Shown here piece after piece: positions 17,841-25,404 of a stretch of 64,000 nucleotides of DNA. A program made the translations under genes and the position numbers. Origin of the DNA: Neolewinella aurantiaca (GTDB lineage: Bacteria > Bacteroidota > Bacteroidia > Chitinophagales > Saprospiraceae); NCBI RefSeq assembly GCF_008014675.1, contig NZ_VOXD01000019.1:1-64000 (forward strand). The letters run 5' to 3'. The notes below the pieces were generated by a model. The model worked only from the letters and a program-made list of their open reading frames with translations, ran no database searches and was not told where the DNA came from. How positions within the stretch are numbered: the stretch's first letter is position 1; each line of letters opens with the position of its first letter.

Positions 17841-17848
17841 TAACTTTG
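17841..17848 (+). promoter_or_regulatory. Bacteroidota -7 element, near-leaderless
   Basis: TAACTTTG matches TAnnTTTG exactly and ends 8 bp before the ATG at 17856, so the mRNA of the nuclease-fold/ParA cassette would begin at or within a few bases of its start codon. Confidence 0.6.
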
Positions 17849-17855
17849 CCATTTC

Positions 17856-19094
17856 ATGGCAAAAAAGACCCTAACCGAACGTTTCATCCAAAACAGTGTA
17901 GCCGAAAGGCTGAACAAGGAGTATTACCGCCGTAAACCGGCCTGGGTAACTACCGAGGAGTACACTAAACTAAAACGGGCAGATGTTTTTCTGGCTTTTA
18001 TGCGGGCGCGCAAACGCCCCTACGTGGTGGTTGTGGAGGCGAAGAGCCGAACAACGATCCACCAACTGAAACTAAAGGAAGCCCCCCGGCAAACCAGATG
18101 GGCGGGGCGGGCGATTACCATTGTATTCATCGTTGGCCTTTCGGCCGTTCTCGGTTACCAGTGGTATTTCAACGCCGTCAACACCCTCTTACTGCTGGGG
18201 CTATTTGTTTTGGGTTCCAGCCTTATTTCCGCCGTACTGAGCAAGTTGGAGCTGAGCGCTCTGGGTTCCATTTCGGCCATTGAGCAGCTTGGCCGTTACC
18301 CCGCCAACGAAAAATGGATTGCGGTGGGTGAAGACACCTTCGTCCGGCCCGAGGAGTACAAAACGCTCGTCGACCAGTGCAAGAAAAATGGCCTCGGCCT
18401 CATTGTGGTCGACGCGAAAGGCCGGTTGAAGCGTAAGCTCATTCCTTCTCCTCGCCACACGTTCAATAACTACCTCGGAAATTACAGCAAAGAAAGCAAG
18501 ATCCTTAGTGCGATCGATAAGCCGGCAGATTACGGCCCTACCCCGCCGGAACGGGCCAAACAACGCCGGCAGTTGCTCAACGCAACGGCCTTGCTGGCCG
18601 TGATCGGGCTGTTGGGCCTGGTATCTTACGAAGAGAATTACCGACCGGTTATCCCCGATCCGTTCTCAGAGAGTTACGTCGATTTGGAAAACGCCGAAAT
18701 TGACTCCGTAGCTGTGCCTAAGCCCGCAATGCCAGCAGATACGGGCGCGGCCGCAGGTGCATTGGAGGTTGAAGAACCCGGTCCGGATGCCGAAGACTGC
18801 TCCTCCTTGTCCGTAGAGCGCCGTTCGTTCATTGTTGTCGACGCGCTGCTTAATCCCCGTAATTCTTCAAAGCGCCTGGCCGAGCTTGAAGGAGCAGGTA
18901 TTGCGGGTTTTACGGCCATTCCGACGGATTGCCTCAACAGCTGGCCCGAACCGGGCCGCCACGCGGTCTACCTCGATTCTGTTTTTTCTCACCGGCCCGC
19001 AGCCAAGCGCTACGCCAACGCCCACCGGGATCGGCTGAACAAAGCGGGGATAGACTTCCGTTACGGCAAGGTCGTCAAAATACGGCCGCGTTAG
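17856..19094 (+). CDS. Membrane protein with split PD-(D/E)XK-like nuclease fold and SPOR-like tail
   Basis: 412 residues. RADVFLAF (D43) and VVVVEAKSR (E61-x-K63) resemble the active-site strands of PD-(D/E)XK nucleases. A transmembrane hairpin (about 84-101 and 105-128) follows, then AIEQLGRY, matching the QxxxY motif (Q144, Y148) of RecB-like members, and GLGLIVVDAKGR. A third helix (about 241-257) leads to an acidic, Pro/Ala-rich linker and a C-terminal domain (about 324-408) reminiscent of SPOR peptidoglycan-binding domains. The linker TGAAAGALE is encoded by an exact dispersed motif. It is followed by parA (97 bp gap) and an RHH gene. Nuclease and SPOR assignments are by eye and unproven. 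Confidence 0.6.
   Translation: MAKKTLTERFIQNSVAERLNKEYYRRKPAWVTTEEYTKLKRADVFLAFMRARKRPYVVVVEAKSRTTIHQLKLKEAPRQTRWAGRAITIVFIVGLSAVLGYQWYFNAVNTLLLLGLFVLGSSLISAVLSKLELSALGSISAIEQLGRYPANEKWIAVGEDTFVRPEEYKTLVDQCKKNGLGLIVVDAKGRLKRKLIPSPRHTFNNYLGNYSKESKILSAIDKPADYGPTPPERAKQRRQLLNATALLAVIGLLGLVSYEENYRPVIPDPFSESYVDLENAEIDSVAVPKPAMPADTGAAAGALEVEEPGPDAEDCSSLSVERRSFIVVDALLNPRNSSKRLAELEGAGIAGFTAIPTDCLNSWPEPGRHAVYLDSVFSHRPAAKRYANAHRDRLNKAGIDFRYGKVVKIRPR
18744..18760 (-). repeat. Dispersed 17-bp motif, exact
   Basis: GGCGCGGCCGCAGGTGC, then ATTGGAGGTT. It encodes GAAAGALE in the interdomain linker. Confidence 0.8.
18744..18773 (-). repeat. Extended form of the dispersed motif
   Basis: The 17-bp core is followed by six bases and then GGTTG. 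The same (G)GTT(G) downstream is seen at most other copies, for example near 25.6, 40.2 and 56.3 kb, suggesting the element is about 30 bp long. Confidence 0.5.
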
Positions 19095-19161
19095 CAGGCC
19101 GGTTTTACGGATGTTTATCGGTAAAGTCTCTCACAGAGACACGCTCTAAAAAACTAATTCC

Positions 19162-19168
19162 TACCTTG
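19162..19168 (+). promoter_or_regulatory. Weak -7-like element upstream of parA
   Basis: TACCTTG 23 bp before the parA ATG resembles TAnnTTTG lacking one T. It could give parA its own promoter in addition to read-through from the upstream gene. Confidence 0.4.
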
Positions 19169-19191
19169 CGCCCAAACTGAGCCTGAACCTT

Positions 19192-19989
19192 ATGGCAACT
19201 GTAATAAGCTTACTGAATCACAAAGGCGGCGTCGGCAAAACGACGAGCGCCATCAATATTGGAGCCGGACTTGTCGAATTGGGCAAGCGCGTCCTCCTCG
19301 TCGATCTTGACCCGCAGGCAAACCTTTCGCTCTCGTTGGGGATTCCCCGGCAGCAGGTCACCATTTACGAAAGCCTGATGGGCGAGAGCGACCTCGCCCC
19401 CTTCTCCGTCCGGGAAGGTTTTGATGTAATCACCTCCAGCCTGGATCTTTCCAGCGCAGAGATGGAACTGGTCAACGAAGCCGGCCGGGAGTACATCCTG
19501 CGGGAACTCTTTGACGGAGTAGACGACGATTACGACTTCATCATCATCGACTGTCCGCCAAGCCTCGGCCTCCTCACGCTGAATGCCCTTACCAGCAGCC
19601 AGCAGGTAATCATTCCGCTTCAAACCGAATTCCTGGCACTGCAGGGTTTGGCCAAGATCAAGCAGGTGATCCAGAAGGTGAAGCTTCGTCTCAACAAAGA
19701 GCTCCACATCAGCGGCGTACTCGCTACGATGTACGACCACCGCAAGGTACTGAACCGCGATGTGGTGGAGACCATCCAGAAGTATTTCGGCCCGCTGTTG
19801 TTCGAGACCTACATCCGCGACAATGTCGCGCTGGCGGAGGCTCCGGCCAGCCGCCAGGACATCTTTGGGTACGCCCGCTCCAGTAACGGCGCAAAAGATT
19901 ATCTTGCCGTGAGTAAAGAAATTCTCGAGCGTACGGCAAACCCAATTCACTTGCGGGAACGTTCCGATAAGAGCAAGACCACCAAATAA
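19192..19989 (+). CDS. ParA-family ATPase
   Basis: The 265-residue deviant-Walker ATPase has HKGGVGKTT (signature lysine) near residue 10, the VDLDPQAN switch, and the Walker B segment DFIIIDCPP. Such ATPases bind DNA nonspecifically as ATP dimers and position chromosomes, plasmids or protein complexes. It is 11 bp upstream of an RHH-domain gene, the usual ParA plus small DNA-binding-partner layout, and follows a membrane protein with nuclease-like and SPOR-like features. It may be the chromosomal soj/parA or a specialised positioning ATPase; no parB of the classical type is in the window. Confidence 0.93.
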   Translation: MATVISLLNHKGGVGKTTSAINIGAGLVELGKRVLLVDLDPQANLSLSLGIPRQQVTIYESLMGESDLAPFSVREGFDVITSSLDLSSAEMELVNEAGREYILRELFDGVDDDYDFIIIDCPPSLGLLTLNALTSSQQVIIPLQTEFLALQGLAKIKQVIQKVKLRLNKELHISGVLATMYDHRKVLNRDVVETIQKYFGPLLFETYIRDNVALAEAPASRQDIFGYARSSNGAKDYLAVSKEILERTANPIHLRERSDKSKTTK

Positions 19990-20000
19990 ACCCGCTAGCT

Positions 20001-20507
20001 ATGGCTAAAAAGCGCTTCACCGACGATCTATCCGGCCTTTTCGAAGAGCCCGACCACACTCCGGAAACAACCCGGGCTGAGGCCGCATCCGTCCGTGCAT
20101 CCGAGCCTGCAGCACCCGATGAAAAAGAGGAACGTGTAGAAGTAGACGTACCGACAAAGACCTCTAAGGCCCGTCGTAAACTGTCCAGCAAAGGATTTAC
20201 CGCCGACCTTGACGCCTTCCTGAGCGAAGGCTTTGAGCGGGAATCCACCGCCCCTTCAACTTCCTCTGCACCTGCGCCTGCGCCCCGAAAATCGCGCCGC
20301 CGCAAAACTGGCCTTGACCTCCTGATCCGCTCCACCGTGGAAGATGAAGACCGTACCCCTCGCGGCGCTAAAGCGCCCGACACCAAACGGGTAACCCTCA
20401 TTTTCAACAAGGAACACCTCGCCACGCTGAAGGAACAAGCCCGAAAGCGAGGGATGTACCTCAAAGATGTGGTGCAGGAAATGGTAGAGGGCTATTTGGA
20501 AGAGTAA
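20001..20507 (+). CDS. Ribbon-helix-helix DNA-binding partner of ParA
   Basis: The 168-residue protein has a disordered, charged N-terminal two-thirds and a C-terminal RHH domain (about 129-168: KRVTLIFNKEHLATLKEQAR then GMYLKDVVQEMVEGYL). Two short copies of an FTxDLxxxF motif occur at about 5-14 (RFTDDLSGLF) and 65-74 (GFTADLDAFL), and KTGLDLLIR near 102 may be a third. These short linear motifs could contact ParA. The Ala/Pro linker APAPAPRK is encoded by the dispersed 17-bp motif. The pair resembles ParA/ParB-like RHH partition modules, but no parS-like array was seen. Confidence 0.75.
   Translation: MAKKRFTDDLSGLFEEPDHTPETTRAEAASVRASEPAAPDEKEERVEVDVPTKTSKARRKLSSKGFTADLDAFLSEGFERESTAPSTSSAPAPAPRKSRRRKTGLDLLIRSTVEDEDRTPRGAKAPDTKRVTLIFNKEHLATLKEQARKRGMYLKDVVQEMVEGYLEE
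20268..20284 (+). repeat. Dispersed 17-bp motif, one mismatch
   Basis: GCACCTGCGCCTGCGCC. It encodes APAPAP in the disordered linker of the RHH protein. Confidence 0.6.
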
Positions 20508-20798: not shown

Positions 20799-23700
20799 AT
20801 GCGTCTATCCCTTTACCTACTGATTTCTTTTTTCGGCGCCGGTTTATTTGCTCAGACCTCCCAGGTGGAGTTTGGCAAAAACCGCGTGCAGTACCACAAA
20901 GATTTTGATAGTTGGGAGCAATACGAATCGGACAACTTCATCACCTATTGGTACGGTGAAGGCCGCGATCTGGGCCAGTCAGTGGTGCAAATGGCCGAGT
21001 ATGACTTCGGCTACATCCAGAAAATGCTGGAGCACCGGATGAACGAAAAGGTACAACTGATCGTGTACCGCGACGTGACGGACCTGAAGCAGAGCAATAT
21101 TGGCAGCGAAGAAGTTTTCACCCTGCCGGGCAATCAAAACCTGGGCCGCAGTACGAGTTACATCTCAGCGACCCAAACCAAGTTCCTTGGCAACAAAGCC
21201 TTCGTTTATTTCAATGGTGATCATTCTGATCTCCGCCGGCAGGTCCGCGAGGCGATGGCCAGCGTTTACATTGAGCACATGCTTTACGGCTCTTCGGTGC
21301 AGGAGGTTGTTCAGAATGCCGTGTTGCTGAACCTTCCCCCATGGTTTAAGGACGGCCTGGTCGGCTACCTCGGGGAAGACTGGAATACGACCAACGACGA
21401 CCAGCTGCGTCAGCTTATGAACAGCGGAGAGTTTGAAAACTTCAAAGAGCTCGCAGCCGTTTACCCCCGCCTGGCGGGTCATTCGTTTTGGAACTACGTA
21501 GCCGAGAATTTCGGCAAACCGACGGTTTCCAACCTGCTTTACCTTACCCGCATCAACCGGTCGGTGGAAAACGGTTTCCTGTACGTACTGGGCAGCAACT
21601 ACGACAACATCCTGTTCAACTGGGGCGAATACTACCGGACCCGCTACGCCGAAGAGGCCGCCGGACGGGCGCTGCCGACGGGTGAAGAGGTTGCCATCAA
21701 GAACAAGCGTCGCCTGCCGGTAACACAGCTAAAAATCAGCCCCGACGGAACGCGCATTGCTTACGTCCTCAACGAGATTGGCCGTTACAAAGTCTACCTG
21801 CAAAACTTGCAAACCGGCGAACGTGAAGTGGTGGCCAAGGGAGGCCAACGCAACCTGCTGCAAGCGACAGACTACAATTACCCCCTTCTCGACTTTTCGC
21901 CCAGCAATCAGGAATTAGCTATCCTGTACGAATTCCGCGATAAGCCCAAACTCTTACTCAAAGACCTGAATTCAGGAGAAGAAGTGACAGAGGAGCTCAC
22001 GACTGTTTTCGACCGGGTATTCAGTATGGCTTATCAGGACCCCGGCAATATGATTCTTTCAGCTTCGGCGAAGGGCCAAACCGACCTCTACTACTATACC
22101 CCTAACGTTCAGCAGGTCCGCCAAATCACCAATGACTTCTGGGATGACCTGGACGCCACGCCCGTGAATATCCGGGGAAGAAGAGGTGTCGTCTTTGCCA
22201 GTAACCGTATCGACACAAAGCTCTCTCCGGCACGGTTAGATACTATCCTCCCGATCCGTGATTATGATTTGTACTACTACGACCTGGAGGGCAAGCCCGG
22301 AGAGCTCGTCCAGATTTCTGATACTCCGCTCGGCAACGAGCGCCAGCCCGTACCAATCGACGGAGATCACTTCAGCTTCCTGTCCGATGTTAGCGGCGTA
22401 GTGAACCGCTACCAGGCACACCTCGAAAATTACCTGGACCATTACGAGCAAACCATTTACCTCTCTACGGGAGACGAGGTTACCCTCCATGCCGACAGTA
22501 CGCTGGAAAGCCTGGACACCACTCTGATTGATTCGGTAGTCGTGTTTCCGGTCATCAAGGAACGCGCAGTGGTAGAAGCCGTGACTAATGGCAACAGCAA
22601 CATCGACATGCAGGACGCCAGCGGTAAACTTCCCCTCGGGGTCTCGCTCTACCTGGCCGATGACAATTTGGCGGTAAGAACCTTTACTTTCGACACGACA
22701 CTCAACGTTTCCGTAGTGCCCACAAATTTCCGGGTACGGAGTTATCAGATTACCGGGCAGAAGGTACCGGTGTTTACCCGTCCGGGTAGTACAGCAACCG
22801 GTGGTTTGATTGCTCCCAATAAAGCCAACCCCGCCGAACCCGTCAGCCCCGCCGACGAAGACGCCTATACTTTCCAGACCCGTTTTGAAGACTTCGTCGA
22901 TCCGCCGCGGCCTGAGTTGGAAAACATTCTCCTGCGGGACCCTGATACCGAAGACACCGAGATCCGGCCAGCCGGACCGGATACTACCGGCACCCGCCCT
23001 AACCTGACGGTGGTAACAAAAGACCCCAGGATACGCCGGCGTACACCATCTAAAGGCATCCTCAGGGGGGAGAGACCTATTCCGGAACTGAACCGGACCT
23101 ATAAATTCATCCGGGGCCGGATCAAGCCATACCGCCTGACCTTCCGGGTTAACTACGTAAAAACGGAAGCGGACAACGATCCGCTCTTTGCTGGCCTCAA
23201 CAACTTCTCGGCCAACCCAACCGGTTACACCCGTCAGCCGCTGGGTATCCTGTTCAAAGGGAATATTCTGGACCTTTTTGAGGATTACACCATTGAGGGC
23301 GGCCTGCGCGTACCGACCAGTTTCAACGGCACCGAATACTTCCTGACCGCCGCAAACCGCAAAAACAGACTGGATAAGATTGTTTCGGTGTACCGCCGTA
23401 ACCGGCGGCTGGAGTCCGGCTTTTACGATGTTCTGCGCCCAAACGCTCCGCGTTTGGTGGAAGAAAACACCCTGCTGGCCCAGTACGGGGTTCGTTACCC
23501 GCTCGACGTTTTCCGTTCCCTGCGGGCAACCGCTACCGTCCGCCGGGACCGGGTACAGACTCTCCCGACCGAACTAGCCGCCCTGCAGACCAGTCCGGAA
23601 AGTCAGGCGCGCGTAGGCGCGAAGTTGGAATACGTCTTCGACAACACCCTCAACCTGGCGACCAATTTACGGATGGGGACGCGGTATAAAGTGTACGCTG

Positions 23701-24392
23701 ACTTCTACAAAAGCTTCAACATCAGTTTCAGTTCCGGAGGGGAAGAAACCGGTTTCGAACCGGGTTTTCTGGGTATAGCAGGCTTCGATGTCAGACATTA
23801 CCAAAGGCTCGACAAGCGTAGCATTCTCGCTGTACGCCTGGCCGGCTCGACCAATTTCGGTCAGCAAAAGTTACTCTACTACCTCGGCGGAGCCGACAAC
23901 AGCCTCCTCAACACCTTCAACGAAGGCATCCCCACACCAACCACAGGCAATTTCGTTTTCCAGGATCTGGCTAATCCCCTTCGTGGGTTCGACGTCAACA
24001 TCCGTAACGGAGGCACTTATTTGCTGAGCAACGCCGAGCTCCGGATTCCGGTGTTCAACTACCTCTTCCGTAATCTCCGCTCTAAGTTGCTGCGCGACTT
24101 TCAGGTCGTCTCGTTTTTTGACATAGGGACTGCGTGGTCAGGCAACGATCCCTTCGATGAAGACAATCCCGTTAACATCACGACTTACCCGGACCCCAAC
24201 ACCATCGGTGCGGGTACAGTTCCCGTTACCGTACGGGTACGGCGCTTCCGCGACCCTATCATATACGGTTACGGTTTCGGAGCACGGACTACTGTCTTCG
24301 GTTACTTCGTCCGGGCAGACTACGCCTGGGGCGTAGAAACCGGCATCCGGGGAGAAGGGAAATTACACCTCAGTTTGGGGATGGATTTCTAA
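20799..24392 (+). CDS. Large outer-membrane protein: peptidase_MA-like, PD40 propeller and beta-barrel
   Basis: The 1197-residue protein has a signal peptide (to FAQ at about 20). Residues about 30-290 resemble a gluzincin-type (peptidase MA-like) domain, but the expected HEXXH is absent (REAMASVYIEHML lies there). A PD40/TolB-like beta-propeller spans about 300-560 (KISPDGTRIAYV, LDFSPSNQELAIL, VFASNRIDTK). A Pro/Thr-rich linker leads to a C-terminal barrel (about 780-1197) of Omp85/BamA-like character with GNFVFQDLANPLRGF and a final LHLSLGMDF. The last 23 bp overlap the convergent DUF3089 gene. It is probably a surface-exposed or assembly-related protein; substrate unknown. Confidence 0.75.
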   Translation: MRLSLYLLISFFGAGLFAQTSQVEFGKNRVQYHKDFDSWEQYESDNFITYWYGEGRDLGQSVVQMAEYDFGYIQKMLEHRMNEKVQLIVYRDVTDLKQSNIGSEEVFTLPGNQNLGRSTSYISATQTKFLGNKAFVYFNGDHSDLRRQVREAMASVYIEHMLYGSSVQEVVQNAVLLNLPPWFKDGLVGYLGEDWNTTNDDQLRQLMNSGEFENFKELAAVYPRLAGHSFWNYVAENFGKPTVSNLLYLTRINRSVENGFLYVLGSNYDNILFNWGEYYRTRYAEEAAGRALPTGEEVAIKNKRRLPVTQLKISPDGTRIAYVLNEIGRYKVYLQNLQTGEREVVAKGGQRNLLQATDYNYPLLDFSPSNQELAILYEFRDKPKLLLKDLNSGEEVTEELTTVFDRVFSMAYQDPGNMILSASAKGQTDLYYYTPNVQQVRQITNDFWDDLDATPVNIRGRRGVVFASNRIDTKLSPARLDTILPIRDYDLYYYDLEGKPGELVQISDTPLGNERQPVPIDGDHFSFLSDVSGVVNRYQAHLENYLDHYEQTIYLSTGDEVTLHADSTLESLDTTLIDSVVVFPVIKERAVVEAVTNGNSNIDMQDASGKLPLGVSLYLADDNLAVRTFTFDTTLNVSVVPTNFRVRSYQITGQKVPVFTRPGSTATGGLIAPNKANPAEPVSPADEDAYTFQTRFEDFVDPPRPELENILLRDPDTEDTEIRPAGPDTTGTRPNLTVVTKDPRIRRRTPSKGILRGERPIPELNRTYKFIRGRIKPYRLTFRVNYVKTEADNDPLFAGLNNFSANPTGYTRQPLGILFKGNILDLFEDYTIEGGLRVPTSFNGTEYFLTAANRKNRLDKIVSVYRRNRRLESGFYDVLRPNAPRLVEENTLLAQYGVRYPLDVFRSLRATATVRRDRVQTLPTELAALQTSPESQARVGAKLEYVFDNTLNLATNLRMGTRYKVYADFYKSFNISFSSGGEETGFEPGFLGIAGFDVRHYQRLDKRSILAVRLAGSTNFGQQKLLYYLGGADNSLLNTFNEGIPTPTTGNFVFQDLANPLRGFDVNIRNGGTYLLSNAELRIPVFNYLFRNLRSKLLRDFQVVSFFDIGTAWSGNDPFDEDNPVNITTYPDPNTIGAGTVPVTVRVRRFRDPIIYGYGFGARTTVFGYFVRADYAWGVETGIRGEGKLHLSLGMDF

Positions 24393-25404
24393 ATGCTTCC
24401 GCACGTTCCACAGCATTCTCCCGTACGTTCACCCAGAAGAGATTGTAGTCGGCGATGTGGTAATTCTTTGTAGTAAAGAAGATATCGCCAAAAAACGAAG
24501 GTTTGTTGGTCACCAGTATGCCGCCTCGCCGTTGGGCCCAGACCAATTCCGGAATCGGCCCCTTATCGTAATTCTGCAGTACGCCTCCATTATTGAGGCT
24601 GGCGGGAGCACGGGTTTCTCCGGTCGTCCAGCTCAGCGGATTTACGACAGCGATGTTGCTTACCGTATCACGATAACCGGGCTTTGCTTCGATATCTTCA
24701 CGGTAGGTGCGCCAGCTCACGAAACAGCCCGTTTGGACAGCATCTTCGCAGACGGGAATAGTAGCGTAAGCATCGGCCGAGACGGGCATCCCTACCAAGT
24801 AAGCAGCGACCAAACGACCCCCTAGCTTTTTTCCGTCGAACCGGTCAGACAAGAGCCTTTTGGCGTGGGTAGTTCCCTGACTATGGCTCGCGATGATGAT
24901 GGGCCGGTCACCGTTCCACGTTTCGATGAAATAATCGAACGCGTTCAGGATATCGGCATAAGCGGTATCGAGGGCCCTCTTGCTAACGGATCGTCCTTCG
25001 GGGTAATACACCGCAAGGTTGGCCTGACGGTACCTCGGAGCGAAGACCCGGCCGGCGGCGTTGAAGATCGACGCCTGGTTCAGGATAGTCGATTCATCTA
25101 CGGCCTCGTTCAGCTTTTCATCGGCGAGGTTAGCGTTCCAAAGATCGTTGCCGGTTACCGCTTTGCGGTAGATGGTGGGGTGAAGAAAGAAAACATCGGC
25201 TGTCGCCGTAGATTGCTTGTCGGCCAATTCATTCCCCGGGGTCCGGTCGGCTTCGTCCTGAGCGAAGGGAGTTGCGGCCCAGTTTTCGGGCAGGCTGTAA
25301 TCCGGTGCCTCCGGCACCGGGAAGAGGTTTCCTTTGGGTAATGAAGGTTTGTTTCCGCATGCAACAAAGAGAAGCAGGGGAAGAACTAAAATTACGCTAC
25401 GCAT
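24370..25404 (-). CDS. DUF3089 alpha/beta-hydrolase lipoprotein
   Basis: The 344-residue protein begins MRSVILVLPLLLFVACGN, a lipobox with Cys at about 16, so it is a predicted lipoprotein. DUF3089 features are DVFFLHPTIY, the nucleophile elbow IIASHSQGTTH, and the late acidic and histidine segments near NYHIADYNLFW. It is probably a serine hydrolase of the alpha/beta fold with unknown substrate. Its 3' end overlaps the convergent PD40-barrel gene by 23 bp. A 24-codon small frame lies 15 bp upstream. Confidence 0.88.
   Translation of the reverse strand: MRSVILVLPLLLFVACGNKPSLPKGNLFPVPEAPDYSLPENWAATPFAQDEADRTPGNELADKQSTATADVFFLHPTIYRKAVTGNDLWNANLADEKLNEAVDESTILNQASIFNAAGRVFAPRYRQANLAVYYPEGRSVSKRALDTAYADILNAFDYFIETWNGDRPIIIASHSQGTTHAKRLLSDRFDGKKLGGRLVAAYLVGMPVSADAYATIPVCEDAVQTGCFVSWRTYREDIEAKPGYRDTVSNIAVVNPLSWTTGETRAPASLNNGGVLQNYDKGPIPELVWAQRRGGILVTNKPSFFGDIFFTTKNYHIADYNLFWVNVRENAVERAEAFRNPSPN

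What the first reader, a model, noticed from the sequence alone, without database searches (positions are those of the whole stretch)
17841..20507. Candidate undescribed cassette: membrane-anchored nuclease-fold protein, ParA and RHH protein
The first protein has D43, E61-x-K63 and Q144xxxY148 in PD-(D/E)XK order, but the fold is interrupted by a transmembrane hairpin after the ExK strand. It ends in a possible SPOR-like domain. It lies upstream of a ParA ATPase and an RHH protein that carries repeated FTxDLxxxF motifs. A DNA-acting module anchored in the membrane, with a septal-glycan-type domain and a positioning ATPase, could link chromosome ends or plasmids to the division site, or could be a defence module.
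Basis: partly seen in the sequence, partly recalled or inferred. Interest (0 to 1): 0.72.

Follow-up and report, generated by a model that had tools for sequence, protein, structure and literature searches.

The report
Membrane nuclease beside a partition gene pair
The window holds two things that happen to be neighbours: a little-known membrane protein that looks like a DNA-cutting enzyme threaded through the inner membrane, with a cell-wall-type domain outside it, and a two-gene DNA-positioning system related to those of plasmids.

Summary
The three genes are real, but they are not a conserved cassette. The 412-aa protein (A) is next to ParA-RHH in 5 of 17 Lewinella-type loci and in 0 of 41 other loci. 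In 10 of 17 it is head-to-head with comM instead. ParA-RHH is a separate gene pair: 52 of 150 genomes of the own family have the RHH gene but no class I A.

A model of A shows a restriction-endonuclease-type core whose loop after the E-x-K strand carries a transmembrane hairpin, then a third transmembrane helix and a SPOR-topology domain with two invariant cysteines. Among 75 class I sequences (those with K63), D43, E61, Q144 and Y148 are in all 75; a sister class of 65 keeps D43, E61 and Q144 without K63.

ParA is closer to Bacteroidota plasmid ParAs (up to 62% identity) than to the genome's next ParA (42%). C's FTxDL motif matches the N-terminus of plasmid partner proteins.

Best reading: an inner-membrane PD-(D/E)XK nuclease acting on DNA at the membrane, probably at the septum, beside an unrelated ParF/ParG-like pair. 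Architecture is well supported; activity and target are inferred.

The parts
17856..19094 (+). Gene A: 412-aa membrane-inserted PD-(D/E)XK-type protein with a C-terminal SPOR-like domain
   Evidence: ORF; model, pLDDT 86.6; 54-row alignment; 75 class I sequences
17856..18071 (+). First half of the nuclease core, residues 1-72: helix with E8/Q12, strands with E34, D43 and E61-x-K63
   Evidence: model elements H8-24, E29-37, E41-51, E54-63; invariant columns
18084..18263 (+). Transmembrane hairpin, residues 77-136, inserted between the E-x-K strand and the QxxxY helix
   Evidence: model helices 77-103 and 109-136; hydropathy peaks
18273..18515 (+). Second half of the nuclease core, residues 140-220: Q144xxxY148 helix, strand, helix, strands
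   Evidence: model; Q144, Y148, W154 and G181 in 75 of 75 class I sequences
18543..18638 (+). Third long helix, residues 230-261, with a transmembrane stretch at about 240-258, after the basic segment ERAKQRR
   Evidence: model; hydropathy; positive-inside rule (inference)
18813..19085 (+). Probably periplasmic SPOR-like domain, residues 320-410; Cys315 just before it and Cys359 inside it are invariant
   Evidence: models; structure matches; both cysteines in 87 of 87 sequences that have the region; profile match to SPOR
19162..19169 (+). Promoter-like TACCTTGC upstream of parA (similar to the Bacteroidota -7 element TAnnTTTG, recalled)
   Evidence: upstream sequences of Lewinella-type relatives, also where A is not the neighbour (L053, L085); the sigma-70 scan found no site
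19192..19989 (+). Gene B: ParA ATPase, 265 aa, deviant Walker A KGGVGKTT
   Evidence: AAA_31 E 1.4e-57; nearest solved relatives are ParA-type proteins
20001..20507 (+). Gene C: 168-aa protein with a ParG-like ribbon-helix-helix C-terminus
   Evidence: profile A3 vs ParG 1p94, E 3.7e-5; ParG Pfam E 0.0018, below its cut-off
20001..20042 (+). N-terminal motif MAKKRFTDDLSGLF of C, shared with plasmid ParA partners
   Evidence: alignments; plasmid partners MAKK(S/N)F(S/T)GGLxSLL
20187..20222 (+). Second copy of the motif in C, SKGFTADLDAFL
20307..20339 (+). Third conserved motif in C, RKTGLDLLIRS (family consensus GLDALIRxT)
20373..20504 (+). Ribbon-helix-helix region of C

Best explanation
A and ParA-RHH are two separate systems. 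A is an inner-membrane protein whose cytosolic PD-(D/E)XK nuclease core is threaded by a transmembrane hairpin in the loop between the catalytic E-x-K strand and the QxxxY helix, so that the active site faces the cytosol close to the lipid surface. A third transmembrane helix carries a disulfide-bonded SPOR-like domain into the periplasm. The likely mechanism is metal-dependent cleavage of DNA that lies at the membrane; in Neolewinella the SPOR-like domain would hold it at the septum, where DNA caught by the closing division site could be cut or trimmed. ParA-RHH is a chromosomal descendant or sister of a plasmid ParF/ParG-type partition pair: the RHH end binds DNA, the basic FTxDL tail stimulates the ParA ATPase, and the duplicated motif gives more than one contact with ParA. 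Shown here: motifs, predicted fold, hairpin position, invariant cysteines, gene order. Inferred: topology, disulfide, catalysis, septal location, DNA target and ATPase stimulation.
For: Fold: the model matches PaqCI 8epx at Z 10.9, rmsd 2.6, 125 aligned over residues 7-200, and XisH 2inb at Z 8.1, rmsd 3.1, 110 aligned. D43, E61, Q144 and Y148 in 75 of 75 class I sequences. C-terminal domain: five SPOR-domain structures rank 2 to 6 at Z 5.4-6.6, and hhalign against a profile of nine SPOR domains of the same genome gives probability 68.8, E 4.5e-5 for that single comparison. Two cysteines in 87 of 87 sequences that have the region and basic flanks fit nuclease inside, domain outside. No tblastn match in the phage or plasmid collections and shared synteny beside comM in 10 of 17 Lewinella-type loci fit a vertically inherited gene. 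Separate systems. Plasmid link of ParA-RHH. Basic N-terminal tails of ParA activators, ParG included: PMC7993993, passages read.
Against: No sequence library recognises the nuclease core: in Pfam, of 54 members one gave PDDEXK_7 at E 0.032 and one SPOR at E 0.051. Foldseek alone gave no match at E 0.001 or better. For the C-terminal domain alone its first two hits were GlnK and IsdG, with SPOR structures (CwlC, DedD) third and fourth, and the SPOR Z values lie below the level of 8 that the tool calls safe. In 53 of 75 class I sequences the region with the cysteines is missing, so the septal role cannot be the core function. No activity is known. No repeated operator-like site was found upstream of parA.
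Confidence: 0.55

Rival explanations
1. Entry restriction: A works like SNIPE, a membrane-bound nuclease that cuts phage DNA as it crosses the inner membrane; anchoring protects the host chromosome.
For: Membrane-anchored cytosolic nuclease as in SNIPE (PMC13190303, abstract and sections 5 and 9 read). The PD-(D/E)XK family COG4741, with an N-terminal membrane helix, was proposed as a guard against foreign DNA (PMC1189080, passages read). Class I is in 38 of 150 family genomes, so it is not universal.
Against: The only defence-library hit is JetD at E 0.0092 to residues 14-62. Shared synteny in Neolewinella; no tblastn match in phages or plasmids. Not a SNIPE homologue: neither GIY-YIG nor DUF4041 is among the Pfam results. 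Enrichment in defence islands was not tested.
Confidence: 0.25
2. Natural transformation: A processes incoming DNA together with the branch-migration helicase ComM.
For: Head-to-head with comM in 10 of 17 Lewinella-type loci, and comM lies between A and ParA-RHH in N. lacunae L085.
Against: The comM neighbour cluster holds 10 loci, all Lewinella-type, and none of the 41 others. In the window genome comM is about 87 kb away. Divergent neighbours need not share a function. ComM's role in transformation is recalled.
Confidence: 0.12
3. The trio is a functional cassette that links chromosome or plasmid DNA to the division site.
For: Adjacent and co-directional in 5 of 17 Lewinella-type loci. Genomes with class I nearly all have the RHH gene: 37 of 38.
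Against: 0 of 41 loci outside that group have B or C beside A. The RHH gene is in 89 of 150 genomes and class I in 38 of 150. The gap from the stop of A to parA varies from 85 to 425 bp (coordinates). Co-occurrence is confounded by shared ancestry and was not corrected for it.
Confidence: 0.06
4. A is a non-catalytic structural membrane protein that has kept a nuclease fold.
For: The sister class II (65 sequences) has lost K63 yet keeps the other core residues and the C-terminal cysteines, so a non-standard role may exist in the family.
Against: Class I keeps D43, E61, Q144 and Y148 in 75 of 75 sequences, with identities to the window protein down to 23%.
Confidence: 0.12

Closest known systems
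PD-(D/E)XK superfamily (PaqCI, XisH)
   Same: Core fold and residue order E, D, E-x-K, QxxxY; PaqCI Z 10.9, XisH Z 8.1
   Different: A transmembrane hairpin of about 60 residues sits inside the fold, and a third helix and SPOR-like domain follow
RmuC and COG4741, membrane-linked PD-(D/E)XK families (PMC1189080, passages read)
   Same: PD-(D/E)XK core with a membrane helix, predicted cytosolic in COG4741
   Different: There the helix is N-terminal, outside the fold; no periplasmic domain is described in the passages read
SNIPE (PMC13190303)
   Same: Inner-membrane nuclease with the catalytic domain in the cytosol
   Different: GIY-YIG nuclease with DUF4041 and an N-terminal helix; unrelated fold and architecture
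SPOR proteins DamX, DedD, FtsN
   Same: Cytosol-membrane-periplasm layout with a C-terminal domain of SPOR topology (their layout is recalled)
   Different: Their cytosolic part is not a nuclease (recalled); A has two invariant cysteines; glycan binding untested
ParF-ParG of TP228 and Bacteroidota plasmid ParA-RHH pairs
   Same: ParA followed by a short RHH protein with a basic N-terminal tail; tail motif shared with three plasmid partners
   Different: On contigs of 7.3 to 8.4 Mb, so chromosomal, in G062, G125 and G127; tail motif duplicated, plus a GLDALIRxT motif absent from the three plasmid partners read

Membership tests
PD-(D/E)XK nuclease superfamily | alpha-beta core fold of the superfamily | tested here: met
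   Model; PaqCI Z 10.9 rmsd 2.6 with 125 aligned, XisH Z 8.1 rmsd 3.1 with 110 aligned
PD-(D/E)XK nuclease superfamily | D ... E-x-K catalytic motif kept across the family | tested here: met
   D43 and E61 in 75 of 75 sequences with K63 (class I); class II keeps D and E in 65 of 65 but has T (61), S (3) or V (1) in place of K
PD-(D/E)XK nuclease superfamily | Sequence-profile match to a known family | tested here: inconclusive
   1 of 54 members, PDDEXK_7 E 0.032; no PDB chain better than E 0.8 by sequence
PD-(D/E)XK nuclease superfamily | Metal-dependent phosphodiester cleavage | not testable with these tools
   Needs an assay
SPOR domain | beta-alpha-beta-beta-alpha-beta topology | tested here: met
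   Models
SPOR domain | Homology to SPOR by structure or sequence | tested here: inconclusive
   Five SPOR structures rank 2-6 at Z 5.4-6.6; Foldseek ranks GlnK and IsdG above them; hhalign probability 68.8, E 4.5e-5; Pfam SPOR 1 of 54 at E 0.051
SPOR domain | Binding of denuded septal glycan | not testable with these tools
   Needs a binding or localisation assay
ParF/ParG-type partition pair | ParA with deviant Walker A next to a small RHH gene | tested here: met
   Sequence; ParA within 0.8 kb upstream of the RHH gene on the same strand in 30 of 30 loci (the best 30 of 89 hits) and in 19 of 20 regions (L158 lacks it)
ParF/ParG-type partition pair | RHH related to ParG | tested here: met
   Profile A3 vs 1p94, E 3.7e-5
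ParF/ParG-type partition pair | Centromere-like repeats upstream | tested here: inconclusive
   No shared repeat seen in the 34 upstream stretches read; sites could lie elsewhere
SNIPE defence | GIY-YIG nuclease plus DUF4041 | tested here: not met
   Neither is in A's Pfam result or in the 20 families matched by A2 members

The most novel reading that the evidence does not exclude
A is the founder of a membrane-threaded PD-(D/E)XK nuclease family in which the catalytic fold itself is stapled into the inner membrane. It often works as a pair of paralogues: an active class I subunit and a class II partner that has lost the catalytic lysine but, in all 65 sequences read, carries the cysteine-marked SPOR-like end. 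In class II a lysine often appears at position 12 (45 of 65), one turn from E8 on the first helix, so class II could be a lysine-migrated enzyme instead of a dead one. The pair would guard the closing septum and cut DNA trapped there, a job so far given to pumping by FtsK (recalled). Five of 38 class I genomes lack class II, so the pair cannot be obligate.
Probability: 0.15. Interest if true: 0.8.

Novelty: new variant of a known kind. Interest (0 to 1): 0.5.

Why it matters
No PD-(D/E)XK protein with a transmembrane hairpin inside its catalytic fold, nor a nuclease fused to a SPOR-like domain, was evident in the papers searched (listings only, except passages of PMC1189080; the library lacks most subscription papers and a main review of the superfamily). 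If it cuts DNA at the septum or at the entry site, it shows a way to confine a nuclease by building the membrane anchor into the enzyme. The family also offers a natural K-bearing and K-less pair for testing what the lysine does. The ParA-RHH part shows a plasmid-type partition pair settled on chromosomes with a duplicated ParA-contact motif, in a genome that has a ParB gene and another ParA elsewhere.

Tried and rejected
Trio as a cassette: rejected on gene order. A functional link of A to its neighbours outside the Lewinella group: the recurrent neighbour clusters did not point one way. Representatives searched in Pfam were a 902-aa PDDEXK_1 protein (cluster of 7 loci), a PAS histidine kinase (6), an LVIVD-repeat protein (5), RNase Y (4) and three without a match; clusters 8 and 17 had no representative in that search. 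A plasmid-borne or phage origin of A: no match. The RHH protein itself found no plasmid match by single-sequence search; the link came from reading the gene after ParA on three plasmids and scoring it with profile A3. Repeats upstream of parA: mostly AT-rich words and the promoter-like TACCTT. Pfam FA_desaturase E 0.0028 on A spans the hairpin and is below its cut-off. PADLOC JetD E 0.0092 covers 49 residues and was set aside. Foldseek without the second aligner gave no significant match. Absence of further folds from the VIA lists proves nothing.

Co-occurrence of class I, class II and RHH is strong by Fisher test but not corrected for ancestry, so it was not used as evidence of function. In that call classes were assigned from the score and frame length, not from K63 in every genome. 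Weak fragments (G020:C401, G065:C394, G074:C311, further pieces of G014 and G137) and the C-terminal-only hits of G012 and G119 were left out before counting. In one search, 203 hits were reduced to 140 distinct sequences and the window was added; one search showed that one of the 140 (L140) was the window's own gene, so the counts given here are those: 75 class I and 65 class II. Alignment A2 used the window and 53 of the 57 loci (L115, L127, L134 and L135, at locus ends, were left out).
Full report
What is there. The window carries three same-strand genes: A (17856-19094, 412 aa), B (19192-19989, 265 aa, ParA) and C (20001-20507, 168 aa). The genome is a draft of 5,995,659 bases in 104 contigs, and the window lies on contig C16. 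The nearest named relatives of A are Lewinella and Neolewinella sequences; I call these loci, with the window, Lewinella-type.

A is a membrane-inserted PD-(D/E)XK-type protein. No Pfam, NCBIfam, PHROGs or PADLOC model covers it at its cut-off; all 54 members of A2 were scanned in Pfam, only the window protein in the other three. A model built from 54 sequences has mean pLDDT 86.6 and pTM 0.61. It shows helix 8-24, strands 29-37, 41-51 and 54-63, a helical hairpin 77-103 and 109-136, helix 140-146, strand 152-158, helix 165-177 and strands 181-185 and 191-195. The second aligner placed residues 7-200 on PaqCI 8epx at Z 10.9, rmsd 2.6, 125 aligned, and residues 9-196 on XisH 2inb at Z 8.1, rmsd 3.1, 110 aligned.

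Motif conservation. Of 140 distinct sequences (recounted), 75 have K at position 63. In all 75, D43, E61, Q144, Y148, W154 and G181 are present; E8 is in 74, with one gap. The other 65 keep D43, E61, Q144 and W154 in all, but have T (61), S (3) or V (1) at 63. Position 12 is Q in 73 of 75 class I and K in 45 of 65 class II. That exchange next to E8 is suggestive of lysine migration, but it was not tested in structure.

Distribution. In 150 genomes of the own family, 38 have class I and 67 have class II; 33 have both, and 5 have class I alone. In a sample of 395 genomes of the class, 4 matched: three are of the own family and one is not. Named members of other genera include Rufibacter and Pontibacter. 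In locus L048 the class II gene lies between folP and an abhydrolase gene followed by tamB.

The C-terminal region. Residues 324-409 form beta-alpha-beta-beta-alpha-beta in both models. With the second aligner SPOR structures CwlC, RlpA (two entries), DamX and DedD rank 2 to 6 at Z 5.4-6.6; the first rank, an exported Burkholderia protein 6ozd, has Z 9.3 with rmsd 2.5 and 80 aligned. Foldseek alone ranked GlnK and IsdG first, then CwlC and DedD, none significant. A profile comparison with nine SPOR domains of the same genome gave probability 68.8 and E 4.5e-5. Cys315 and Cys359 are present in 22 of 22 class I and 65 of 65 class II proteins that have the region; 53 of 75 class I lack it. A disulfide outside the cytosol is the natural reading (inference).

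B and C. B is a ParA with the deviant Walker A motif; its nearest solved relatives are named ParA family, segregation and Soj proteins, and two entries named cobyrinic acid a,c-diamide synthase. C ends in a ribbon-helix-helix region; profile A3 matches ParG 1p94 at E 3.7e-5. ParA lies within 0.8 kb upstream of the RHH gene in 30 of 30 loci read, the best 30 of 89 hits, and in 19 of 20 regions; the exception is L158. The surroundings of the pair vary. The genome has one ParB match, on contig C28, and another ParA at 42% identity on C48, so this pair is additional.

Plasmid link. The best plasmid ParA, from Flavobacterium, is 61.9% identical to B. The genes after ParA on plasmids of Flavobacterium, Adhaeribacter and Tenacibaculum encode short proteins that begin MAKK(S/N)F(S/T)GGLxSLL and match profile A3 at both ends (E 4e-16 to 1e-14 in a search of three sequences). 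A search with the Tenacibaculum partner found 9 plasmid records, so this partner type is not shown for most of the 312 plasmids with a similar ParA. The FTxDL motif of C therefore corresponds to the N-terminal tail of this kind of ParA partner, present twice in C. Basic N-terminal tails are known to stimulate ParA-type ATPases, ParG included (PMC7993993, passages read). Whether the chromosomal pair came from a plasmid or the reverse was not tested.

The trio. A, B and C are adjacent in the window, L081, L082, L084 and L086: 5 of 17 Lewinella-type loci (the window and L081-L096). In 10 of 17 (L085, L087-L089, L091-L096) A is head-to-head with comM. L083 and L090 have neither, and L083 ends 0.8 kb after A. 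L085 has RHH, ParA and comM on one strand with A opposite. None of the 41 other loci (L097-L137) has a B or C match beside A, though some are cut by contig ends. On the tree of A the trio rows and the comM rows fall on two sides of one branch, support 78/85. In G006, whose contig length is that of N. aquimaris L089, A and ParA-RHH are on different contigs. The adjacency is thus a local arrangement of one group.

Function. The evidence supports a membrane-held nuclease fold with intact catalytic residues. What it cuts is inferred. A septal role rests on the SPOR-like domain, which the short class I proteins lack. An entry-restriction role rests on analogy with SNIPE (PMC13190303, abstract and sections 5 and 9). 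A competence role rests on comM synteny in one group. I rank them in that order.

Literature. Searches for nuclease with SPOR domain, EXK nuclease with transmembrane helices and EXK with phosphodiesterase superfamily showed no paper on such a protein in their listings. Membrane-linked relatives in print are RmuC and COG4741, both with an N-terminal helix (PMC1189080, passages). A review of the superfamily that I looked for was not held.

Noticed in passing
L048:7875-9293 and other class II loci; own genome G000:C34:43412-44050: A K-less sister class of A (65 sequences) with an invariant cysteine pair and SPOR-like end; in L048 it lies between folP and abhydrolase/tamB genes, and L036 and L044 have neighbouring genes of similar size and order in part.
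   Followed up: partly
L085, L087-L089, L091-L096: Class I gene head-to-head with comM in 10 Lewinella-type loci.
   Followed up: partly
class II proteins, position equivalent to 12 of A: Lysine at position 12 in 45 of 65 class II sequences where class I has Q: possible lysine migration.
   Followed up: partly
L158 (genome G057): An RHH gene of the C family without a ParA match in the 19-kb region.
   Followed up: no
window 20799-24392: 1197-aa protein downstream with TolB-propeller matches far below their cut-offs; a homologue also follows the RHH gene in L082 and L084, with a short ORF between.
   Followed up: no
window 24370-25404 (-): DUF3089 protein, E 2e-59.
   Followed up: no
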